Part shown: positions 40,376 to 41,242 of the stretch, piece after piece
Numbering within the stretch: the stretch's first letter is position 1
Layout of the letters: the number at the start of each line of letters is the position of its first letter
From: Chlorops oryzae
Taxonomy: Eukaryota > Arthropoda > Insecta > Diptera > Chloropidae
Direction: 5' to 3'
Length of the DNA stretch: 64,000 nt
Assembly: GCA_020466095.1 (NCBI GenBank)
Contig: CM035808.1
Span: forward strand, 71,592,398 to 71,656,397
Made by a program: the position numbers and the translations under genes
The notes under the pieces: generated by a model
What the model saw: the letters and a program-made list of their open reading frames with translations, nothing else
What the model was told of the DNA's origin: nothing
Database searches by the model: none

Positions 40376-41242
40376 TTGTTAAAAGTCAAGCAGGAAAAAG
40401 CGAACATTCAATATATAAAAGCAGGGAAAGAGGCAGAAGATATTAACCGCAAGCTAACCGAAGAGCATGCACAATTGATTCGAATTCCAGTCAAGGGATA
40501 TTTTAAACATTTTTTAGGAAATTCAGAAAAGAATCGCTATAAGAACGTACCTTGTTTTGACCACAGTCGTGTAAAATTACCACCACATCAGGAGAATATA
40601 TCAGGATATATTTATGCTAGTTTTGTGGATGGGCACAAAAAGACTAAGTCATATATAGCTACGAAGGGGCCTCTCGAATATTCCATACAAGACTTCTGGC
40701 AAATGGTATGGGAGCAAAATTGTAATACCATAGTTATGCTCACGAAGTCGAGAGAATGTGCTAGATACTGGGAAGCTGACGTAAATTCCACCAAAATATT
40801 TTCGCAATTTCGCGTTAAAACGCTCAGTAAAAATGAAAACAAGAATTTTGTTTGTACGGAGTTAGAACTATACGATCAAAAATCAGAAACTTCTAGAACA
40901 ATTTACCATTGGCAATTTAAGTGTTGGGCCGATCAAGGCATACCAAGTGCTAATCTTTTATGGCAATTTTTAAGATTAGTTAAGGAAAATCAAAAGAGGT
41001 TAACTACTAATATAACAAATCCGCCGCCGATGATAGTTCATTGCGCTGCAGGCATAGGTAGAACATGCGTTTTTATAGCTTTAAATGTCGCCTTAGATTT
41101 GAAAGAAAATAAAAAGAACATAAGGGTGCGGGAAATAGTTAACAAAATACGTGCACAAAGGGCGCAAGCAATTCCAAACGCCACACAATACATATTTTGT
41201 TACCAGGCCCTTAACATACTAAATGAAAAAATTATCAATTAA
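40376..41242 (+). CDS. Integrase tail fused to classical protein tyrosine phosphatase domain
   Basis: The open frame (from 40,229, first Met 40,376) starts with the integrase GPY/F module (WEGPYRVVSL) and without interruption becomes a PTP. From the Met, residue 52-55 is the KNRY pTyr loop, 78-86 YIYASFVDG (usual YINAS), 93-108 YIATKGPLEYSIQDFW, 110-116 MVWEQNC, 128-132 CARYW, 184-186 WAD in place of WPD with the general-acid Asp kept, and 222-230 HCAAGIGRT with nucleophile Cys223 and Arg229. The Q-loop is NATQY, retaining the second Gln but apparently not the first. Length, about 240 residues, is a full classical PTP domain. Hydrolysis of phosphotyrosine is expected from the family. The frame is intact whereas gag and pol are not. 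No membrane segment or signal peptide is seen. Origin from an insect or parasitoid-virus PTP is only a guess. Confidence 0.93.
   Translation: MLKVKQEKANIQYIKAGKEAEDINRKLTEEHAQLIRIPVKGYFKHFLGNSEKNRYKNVPCFDHSRVKLPPHQENISGYIYASFVDGHKKTKSYIATKGPLEYSIQDFWQMVWEQNCNTIVMLTKSRECARYWEADVNSTKIFSQFRVKTLSKNENKNFVCTELELYDQKSETSRTIYHWQFKCWADQGIPSANLLWQFLRLVKENQKRLTTNITNPPPMIVHCAAGIGRTCVFIALNVALDLKENKKNIRVREIVNKIRAQRAQAIPNATQYIFCYQALNILNEKIIN

What the first reader, a model, noticed from the sequence alone, without database searches (positions are those of the whole stretch)
40376..41242. A gypsy retrotransposon that carries a complete tyrosine phosphatase fused to its integrase
The reading frame passes from the integrase GPY/F module directly into a full classical PTP domain with KNRY, WxD, HCxxGxxRT and a near-normal Q-loop. 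LTR retrotransposons normally end pol here or have env. I know of no established gypsy lineage with a PTP, although insect DNA viruses and parasitoid-wasp bracoviruses encode PTPs. The PTP frame is undamaged while gag and pol carry stops. That hints the domain was kept longer by selection or was acquired late, but it could also be chance in a short gene. A pol-borne PTP could act on host signalling or on the element's own particles; this is speculative.
Basis: partly seen in the sequence, partly recalled or inferred. Interest (0 to 1): 0.92.

Follow-up and report, generated by a model that had tools for sequence, protein, structure and literature searches.

The report
Retrotransposon integrase carrying host phosphatase
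A jumping gene in an insect genome, probably a fly's, carries a copy of the host's own tyrosine phosphatase joined to the end of its DNA-inserting enzyme, and a distant relative shows the same joined pair, so the borrowed enzyme is probably useful to the element rather than an accident.

Summary
ORF 40229-41242 runs without a stop from the integrase GPY/F module into a complete classical PTP domain (PF00102, E 3.6e-70). It lies in a Ty3/gypsy element with 511-bp LTRs (7 mismatches), a 4-bp target duplication, PBS and PPT, split by a younger BEL element. It is not a one-off: P0001 is a second GPY/F-PTP fusion, 41% identical over 97%; it is the only other one among 200 proteins in hand. Both PTPs sit next to PTPN9/Meg2 (97/89) and together (99/97), though an AU test does not reject separate placements (p 0.29). 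Simulated neutral drift to this divergence left stops in 200 of 200 runs, so the domain was probably under selection. The intact frame of this copy alone proves nothing (P about 0.35). Sister pol proteins end after GPY/F. Correction: the Q-loop is not near-normal; the Gln262 position of PTP1B is lost in both fusions, while Cys, Arg and the WPD Asp remain. I favour a slow, phosphotyrosine-holding phosphatase delivered with integrase. Other copies and dN/dS were not examined: the genome search did not complete.

The parts
24570..25080 (+). 5' LTR (511 bp, TG...CA)
   Evidence: 7 mismatches of 511 to the 3' LTR; target-site duplication AGGC at 24566-24569 and 43584-43587
25085..25096 (+). primer binding site-like TGGCGCAGCCGG, 4 bp after the LTR
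   Evidence: that it resembles the tRNA-Ser-type site of 17.6/297 is recalled, not tested
25683..27704 (+). gag frame with zf-CCHC and a Retrotrans_gag match just under its cut-off; one in-frame stop at 26136
27605..29776 (+). pol part 1: protease (PF00077) and reverse transcriptase (PF00078), in the -1 frame relative to gag; stops at 28397 and 29774
29785..30591 (+). pol part 2: end of RT and RNase H (PF17917/PF17919), in another frame
30674..39433 (+). nested BEL/Pao element (Peptidase_A17), inserted in pol between RNase H and integrase; not part of the gypsy element; right end uncertain by a few bases
39434..40228 (+). pol part 3: integrase H2C2 and rve core (each rve piece under the Pfam cut-off because the stop splits it); stops at 39749 and 40226
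40229..40384 (+). GPY/F module of integrase, first part of the open 337-aa frame
   Evidence: 34 of 52 residues identical to P0001
40385..40519 (+). linker between GPY/F and PTP, same frame, without a Met codon
   Evidence: Met only at residues 159, 170 and 268 of the frame
40520..41212 (+). classical PTP domain nearest to PTPN9/Meg2; Tyr104, Asp235, Cys272, Arg278, Gln320 kept; Gln262-equivalent (Pro316) and E-loop Lys lost
41240..41242 (+). TAA that ends the integrase-PTP frame
41243..43058 (+). A-rich 3' region without any + strand frame of 80 aa or more; no env seen
43059..43072 (+). polypurine tract AAAGGGGGGAGGGA
43073..43583 (+). 3' LTR (511 bp)

Best explanation
A Ty3/gypsy lineage captured (probably once) the catalytic domain of a host PTPN9/Meg2-type phosphatase and reads it as the last domain of pol, directly behind the integrase GPY/F module, where sister pol proteins end. 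The PTP is therefore made in Gag-Pol amounts and would be packaged with integrase (inferred from the shared frame and the absence of a start codon before the PTP). In both known fusions the nucleophile Cys, the phosphate-binding Arg, the acid Asp and the phosphotyrosine-loop Tyr are kept, but the Gln that positions the water for hydrolysis of the phosphoenzyme is lost. The most likely working mode is a slow phosphatase that holds on to phosphotyrosine proteins, brought by the incoming particle or integration complex to host (or element) phosphoproteins. Shown: fusion, relatedness, open frames in both, residue pattern. Inferred: packaging, activity, targets. The copy in this window is a decaying member. 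Likelihoods: capture with long retention about 0.8 (lowered from 0.85 after the AU test); a single capture about 0.75; the slow or holding mode about 0.4.
For: Open GPY/F-PTP frame and Pfam match. Second fusion P0001, 41% over 97% of the frame. The two PTPs form a clade (99/97) next to 20 PTPN9 rows (97/89); P0001 alone also falls with PTPN9 (96). Among the 60 PDB rows shown, PTPN9 is the best single-domain chain for both: 180 against at most 145 bits for the window, 188 against at most 165 for P0001; two-domain receptor chains total more because two domains are summed. The first 10 of 50 listed Foldseek PDB matches are PTPN9/MEG2. Most of the PTP part of the model is at pLDDT above 90. 42 (window) and 48 (P0001) of 52 conserved positions are kept; cellular rows keep 46-52. 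Neutral simulation: about 9 stops a lineage, 0 of 200 runs free of stops. Gln262 mutation lowers PTP1B kcat about 100-fold, and Q262A was used to see the cysteinyl-phosphate (PMC10267100, passages). Sister pol P0193 ends just after GPY/F.
Against: Only one further fusion was found, on a 1312-base contig of unknown organism; that it lies in an element was not seen. No other copy of this family was seen, so no dN/dS. An AU test does not reject trees in which either fusion joins PTPN9 without the other (p 0.29 and 0.294), and the window PTP is about as similar to dipteran PTPN9 (42%) as to P0001 (41%), so two captures are not excluded. Alone, the window PTP has no starred grouping, and P0001's highest identity is to a receptor-type row (40%). 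The window copy has seven further changes at conserved sites that could mean loss of activity; one D2 domain keeps more conserved sites (47) than the window (42), so such counts do not show activity. The alignment behind the model held many PTPN9 sequences and may bias the fold ranking. Packaging and targets are untested.
Confidence: 0.55

Rival explanations
1. Pseudophosphatase tether: the domain no longer dephosphorylates but binds phosphotyrosine proteins, and by its place behind GPY/F steers the integration complex, as the chromodomain of chromoviruses is thought to do from the same place (recalled).
For: Position directly behind GPY/F; Gln262-equivalent lost in both fusions; the window copy also lost the E-loop Lys and WPD Pro. 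Inactive polydnavirus PTPs have been suggested to trap phosphoproteins (PMC3573978, passages).
Against: Cys, Arg, Asp and the pTyr-loop Tyr are all kept in both fusions, which a pure binding role would not need; P0001 keeps 48 of 52 conserved positions.
Confidence: 0.22
2. Host-signalling enzyme: the element's protease releases a free, active PTP that dephosphorylates host signalling or defence proteins in the cell that makes the particles, as proposed for polydnavirus PTPs.
For: Near-complete catalytic motif set in P0001; a polydnavirus PTP expressed in fly hemocytes lowered phenoloxidase activity (PMC9866809, passages).
Against: No separate start codon, so output is limited to Gag-Pol amounts unless splicing or cleavage occurs; I did not look for a cleavage site or splice site; the lost Gln predicts slow turnover.
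Confidence: 0.2
3. Two separate captures: related elements took up a Meg2-type PTP behind GPY/F independently, and both are carried with a role.
For: AU tests do not reject separate placement; the window PTP is no closer to P0001 (41%) than to dipteran PTPN9 (42%). Fast-evolving rows may also be drawn together in a tree.
Against: 99/97 support for one clade; the same junction behind GPY/F; three conserved positions lost in both.
Confidence: 0.15
4. Passive passenger: a host Meg2 fragment was transduced into the family and has no role.
For: The window copy shows changes at conserved sites; only two fusions are known; this copy's intact frame is compatible with chance (P about 0.35).
Against: Two fusions with the same domain order are only 41% identical and both open; 0 of 200 neutral runs stayed free of stops.
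Confidence: 0.1

Closest known systems
PTPN9 / Meg2 (Ptpmeg2) cellular phosphatases
   Same: PTP catalytic domain; tree sister at 97/89; dipteran PTPN9 proteins P0107 and P0108 are 41-42% identical
   Different: No CRAL-TRIO domain in the window ORF; the Gln262-equivalent is lost; fused to an integrase end
Ty3/gypsy pol proteins without the PTP (P0193, P0098)
   Same: PR-RT 59%, RNase H 76%, integrase core 78%, GPY/F 60% identity to P0193; P0098 matches GPY/F
   Different: Their pol proteins end shortly after GPY/F; their downstream DNA was not seen
Chromodomain-bearing Ty3/gypsy elements (chromoviruses)
   Same: An extra domain of host type at the integrase C-terminus (position recalled); the chromodomain is named as a well-known accessory domain of LTR elements in PMC6338049 (passages)
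   Different: A PTP in place of a chromodomain; no chromodomain match
Polydnavirus (bracovirus, ichnovirus) PTPs
   Same: Single classical PTP domains carried by an insect mobile agent; structural matches
   Different: Separate genes of about 300 aa (PMC3573978, passages); 17-36% identity to the window domain among the named polydnavirus rows listed
MDG1-group insect LTR elements with accessory sORF1/sORF2
   Same: Insect LTR retrotransposons with extra coding content beyond gag-pol (PMC11952523, abstract and passages)
   Different: Those are small separate ORFs before gag, not an enzyme fused to integrase; no + strand ATG frame of 25 aa or more was listed in the leader here
Retroelements that carry host gene pieces (v-onc retroviruses, maize Bs1); recalled, no call
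   Same: Capture of host coding sequence in a retroelement
   Different: Those are recent and usually damage the element; here the fusion looks old and is in frame with pol

Membership tests
Ty3/gypsy LTR retrotransposon | Two LTRs, target duplication, PBS, PPT | tested here: met
Ty3/gypsy LTR retrotransposon | Domain order PR-RT-RH-IN with GPY/F | tested here: met
   order read across the nested BEL element, pieces searched apart
Ty3/gypsy LTR retrotransposon | Place in a named lineage by an RT tree | not tested
   no named reference elements were at hand
Errantivirus (env-bearing gypsy) | env ORF behind pol | tested here: not met
   no + strand frame of 80 aa or more between 41243 and 43072; only short frames, one of 39 aa with a hydrophobic stretch at 41223-41342
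Classical protein tyrosine phosphatase | PF00102 fold and HCx5R with KNRY and WPD | tested here: met
   WPD is WAD in the window copy, WPD in P0001
Classical protein tyrosine phosphatase | Q-loop with both Gln (262 and 266 of PTP1B) | tested here: not met
   Pro316 and Gln320 in the window, Ser and Gln in P0001; 39 and 40 of 40 cellular rows have these Gln
Classical protein tyrosine phosphatase | Phosphatase activity | not testable with these tools
   needs an assay
PTPN9/Meg2 family | PTP domain groups with PTPN9 | tested here: met
   97/89; P0001 alone 96, window alone unstarred
PTPN9/Meg2 family | N-terminal CRAL-TRIO domain | tested here: not met
   no such match in the window ORF
Chromovirus | Chromodomain behind integrase | tested here: not met
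   one search lists no chromodomain at E <= 0.001
Polydnavirus PTP family | Groups with bracovirus or ichnovirus PTPs | tested here: inconclusive
   no viral PTP was in the tree; 16-36% identity in the 50 listed viral rows against 38-39% to PTPN9/MEG2; three viral-contig scans confirmed no relative

The most novel reading that the evidence does not exclude
A Ty3/gypsy lineage uses a captured, slowed Meg2 phosphatase as a phosphotyrosine-reading head on its integrase: the particle or integration complex docks on tyrosine-phosphorylated host proteins, so that host signalling state decides where or when the element moves or integrates.
Probability: 0.2. Interest if true: 0.92.

Novelty: new variant of a known kind. 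Interest (0 to 1): 0.74.

Why it matters
Captured host enzymes in LTR retrotransposons are rare (recalled), and the integrase C-terminus is where other lineages keep a targeting domain. A signalling phosphatase kept there across deeply diverged elements would link retrotransposon movement to host tyrosine phosphorylation and give a direct test of whether such elements act on host signalling. It would also add a second route, besides polydnaviruses, by which insect mobile agents took up PTPs.

Tried and rejected
Chance or assembly artefact: rejected, because the frame is open across the junction and P0001 has the same domain order. Bracovirus origin: not supported by identities, though no viral PTP was put in the tree. 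Intact frame of this copy as proof of selection: rejected (expected 1.05 events, P0 = 0.35). Env-bearing element: no env frame. Further fusions: of the 200 proteins returned and held, 7 match GPY/F: P0001, and six integrase proteins (P0098, P0193, P0197, P0198, P0199, P0200) whose Pfam lists show no PF00102; one search listed only 120 of its 425 hits and scored only 7999 candidates, so more may exist. Viral contigs: no relative in three scans. Genome contigs: only two chlamydial PTP-like loci at 24-31% identity, judged unrelated to the fusion. Single capture as certain: not upheld, the AU tests do not reject separate placement (p 0.29, 0.294). Literature: ten searches were answered; eight bear on LTR elements with a PTP (20 of 143 papers listed; 15: 15 of 43; 31: 12 of 109; 42: 4 of 4; 57: 1 of 1; 62: 5 of 5; 83: 8 of 11; 101: 0 found), seen as titles and starts of abstracts, and none of the listed names such an element there; two searches were on bracovirus PTPs and PTP1B. 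Seven papers were opened, all as passages found by terms (PMC11952523 also outline and abstract). Most subscription papers and all repeat libraries are not held. The organism was not identified; that it is a fly is inferred from insect-type elements and a CK2alpha-like ORF recognised by recall.

Full report
Observation. The window holds an open frame at 40229-41242 (+, 337 aa) that starts with the integrase GPY/F module and ends with a classical protein tyrosine phosphatase (PF00102 at residues 98-328, E 3.6e-70). The frame has its only Met codons at residues 159, 170 and 268, inside the PTP fold, so the whole domain cannot be started separately without splicing; it is read as the end of pol. 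Splice sites were not examined.

The element. The frame lies in a Ty3/gypsy insertion with both ends: LTRs at 24570-25080 and 43073-43583 (511 bp, 7 mismatches), flanked by AGGC on both sides, with a PBS-like TGGCGCAGCCGG and a polypurine tract. At 1.4% LTR divergence the insertion is young (under a million years at fly mutation rates, which are recalled). gag (zinc knuckle, 25683-27704), PR-RT (to 29776) and RNase H (29785-30591) precede a nested BEL/Pao element at about 30674-39433. The integrase resumes after it. Outside the last frame I count five stops and one frame change in 1932 codons; the stop at 29774 and the frame change beside it may be one event. No env frame follows the PTP.

Is the intact PTP frame meaningful in this copy? 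No. At six events per 1932 codons, 1.05 are expected in 337 codons and none in 35% of cases; with five events the same arithmetic gives about 42%.

A second fusion. A search of 5.8 billion proteins with the frame gave 99 hits; the best, P0001 (362 aa, ENA, 1312-base contig), matches 97% of the query at 41% identity, including GPY/F and linker. By module, identity is 34 of 52 in GPY/F, 11 of 41 aligned in the linker and 99 of 226 aligned in the PTP. A profile of the two gave 425 hits, of which the best 120 were listed and only 7999 candidates scored; a search for longer proteins gave 11 hits. Of the 200 proteins so obtained, 7 match the GPY/F stretch: P0001 and six integrase proteins without PF00102 in their Pfam lists. 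So P0001 is the only further fusion found. The nearest plain pol, P0193 (1312 aa), matches the window at 59% (PR-RT), 76% (RNase H), 78% (integrase core) and 60% (GPY/F) and ends shortly after GPY/F; P0098 ends at the same place. I could not read the DNA behind them, so a separate downstream PTP frame is not excluded. On present evidence the PTP was added to an element whose pol ended at GPY/F.

Origin. Among the 60 PDB rows shown, PTPN9 is the best single-domain chain for both: 180 against at most 145 bits for the window and 188 against at most 165 for P0001; two-domain receptor chains have higher totals because two domains are summed. I built a tree of 71 PTP domains (2 fusions; 69 cellular domains from 64 proteins, picked by hand from the 183 proteins with a usable domain). 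The fusions form a clade (bootstrap 99, SH-aLRT 97) joined to 20 PTPN9 rows (97/89); the PTPN9 rows without the fusions have only 79/33. Left alone with 45 cellular domains, P0001 joins PTPN9 at 96, though its highest identity is to a receptor-type row (40%); the window PTP is nearest to PTPN9 but without a starred branch. AU tests do not reject trees in which the window PTP, or P0001, joins PTPN9 without the other (p 0.29 and 0.294). A single capture of a Meg2 domain is the best reading, not a proven one.

Selection. I evolved random sequences of 277 codons with the make-up of the frame in two neutral lineages until they were 41% identical; each lineage held about 9 stops on average and at least one in every run, and 0 of 200 runs were free of stops in both. 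Insertions and deletions were ignored, which favours survival of the frame. The path between the two fusions is 1.94 changes per column, against 0.17 between the dipteran PTPN9 rows P0107 and P0108 (read from the tree), so most of the divergence is likely to have built up after the domain left the slowly changing host gene, with one capture or two. The open frames then need selection for most of that time. This is not a dN/dS test, which needs copies that I could not get.

Active site. Among 52 columns conserved in at least 90% of 40 cellular domains (chosen by hand), the window keeps 42 and P0001 48; the cellular rows keep 46-52, and three D2 domains 47, 33 and 39 (the second is cut short), so the counts alone do not show activity. 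Kept in both: the KNRY Tyr, the WPD Asp, the nucleophile Cys, the Arg and the second Q-loop Gln. Lost in both: the Gln262 position of PTP1B (Pro, Ser), the Gly after HCx5RT (Cys, Ala) and the Asn of YINA (Tyr, His). P0001 has one further change (Leu to Met). Changed in the window alone: the Pro of WPD, the Ser of HCSAG, the Gln of TQGP, the E-loop Lys (within a gap of five residues), and a Thr, a Leu and an Asp (to Ser, Trp, Asn). [quoted passage not shown] its mutation lowers kcat about 100-fold, and Q262A was used to see the cysteinyl-phosphate (PMC10267100, passages); Gln262 and Gln266 coordinate the catalytic water in closed structures (PMC2638020, passages). The predicted structure has mean pLDDT 83.6, and most of the PTP is above 90. 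The first 10 of 50 listed PDB matches are PTPN9/MEG2 at 38-39% identity; the alignment used held many PTPN9 sequences, which may favour this. Viral structural matches are mainly polydnavirus and giant-virus PTPs, 16-36% identity among the 50 listed of 52 at E <= 0.001; the first and third have no name in the tables.

Mechanism. The PTP sits behind GPY/F, where chromoviruses keep a chromodomain (position recalled). It would be made in Gag-Pol amounts and packaged with integrase (inferred). The residue pattern fits a phosphatase that can form the phosphoenzyme but turns over slowly. I therefore favour a slow, phosphotyrosine-holding enzyme brought by the particle or the integration complex to host or element phosphoproteins. 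A pure binding tether and a released signalling enzyme are close rivals. A passive passenger is the least likely.

Novelty. Eight paper searches bear on this; none of the papers listed names an LTR element with a PTP, by title and start of abstract, and the listings were capped. A review names the chromodomain and a DnaQ-like exonuclease as well-known accessory domains of LTR elements and its main text does not hold the word phosphatase (PMC6338049, passages). Repeat libraries were not available, so consensus entries with a PTP may exist. I rate it a new variant of a known kind: an LTR retrotransposon with a captured accessory domain of a type that I did not find reported.

Limits. The genome search tool did not complete (25 calls), so copy number, other full copies, dN/dS and the host's own Meg2 gene were not examined. 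The organism is not identified. P0001 is a single short contig of unknown organism, and whether it lies in an element was not seen.

Noticed in passing
30674-39433: BEL/Pao element (Peptidase_A17, RVT_1) nested inside the gypsy pol; its LTR stretches are 98-100% alike, so it is also young. A candidate target duplication ACGT lies at 30670-30673 and 39434-39437.
   Followed up: partly
43787-58714: Two BEL-type elements on the - strand in tandem, 99.65% alike over 5.8 kb, with three LTR-like copies (43787, 51376, 58286) of which the first is only about 96% like the other two; looks like a tandem array sharing an LTR.
   Followed up: partly
17424-18443: Intron-free 339-aa protein kinase ORF (PF00069, E 1.1e-65) that looks like casein kinase II alpha (by recall); the only apparent host gene that I saw in this repeat-rich window.
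   Followed up: partly
41223-41342: 39-aa ATG frame overlapping the end of the PTP frame, with a hydrophobic stretch after a basic start, like a signal or membrane segment; possibly a remnant of a further gene.
   Followed up: no
2177-4925: Reverse transcriptase ORF (PF00078) and an overlapping ORF on the - strand, probably a non-LTR retrotransposon; a second one may lie at 7052-10538 (by eye, not tested).
   Followed up: partly
13758-14126: Tc3-type transposase fragment on the - strand (PF11427).
   Followed up: partly
L001:2718-3335 and L002:843-1544: PTP-like stretches in two Chlamydiae MAGs (31% and 24% identity to the window frame).
   Followed up: no
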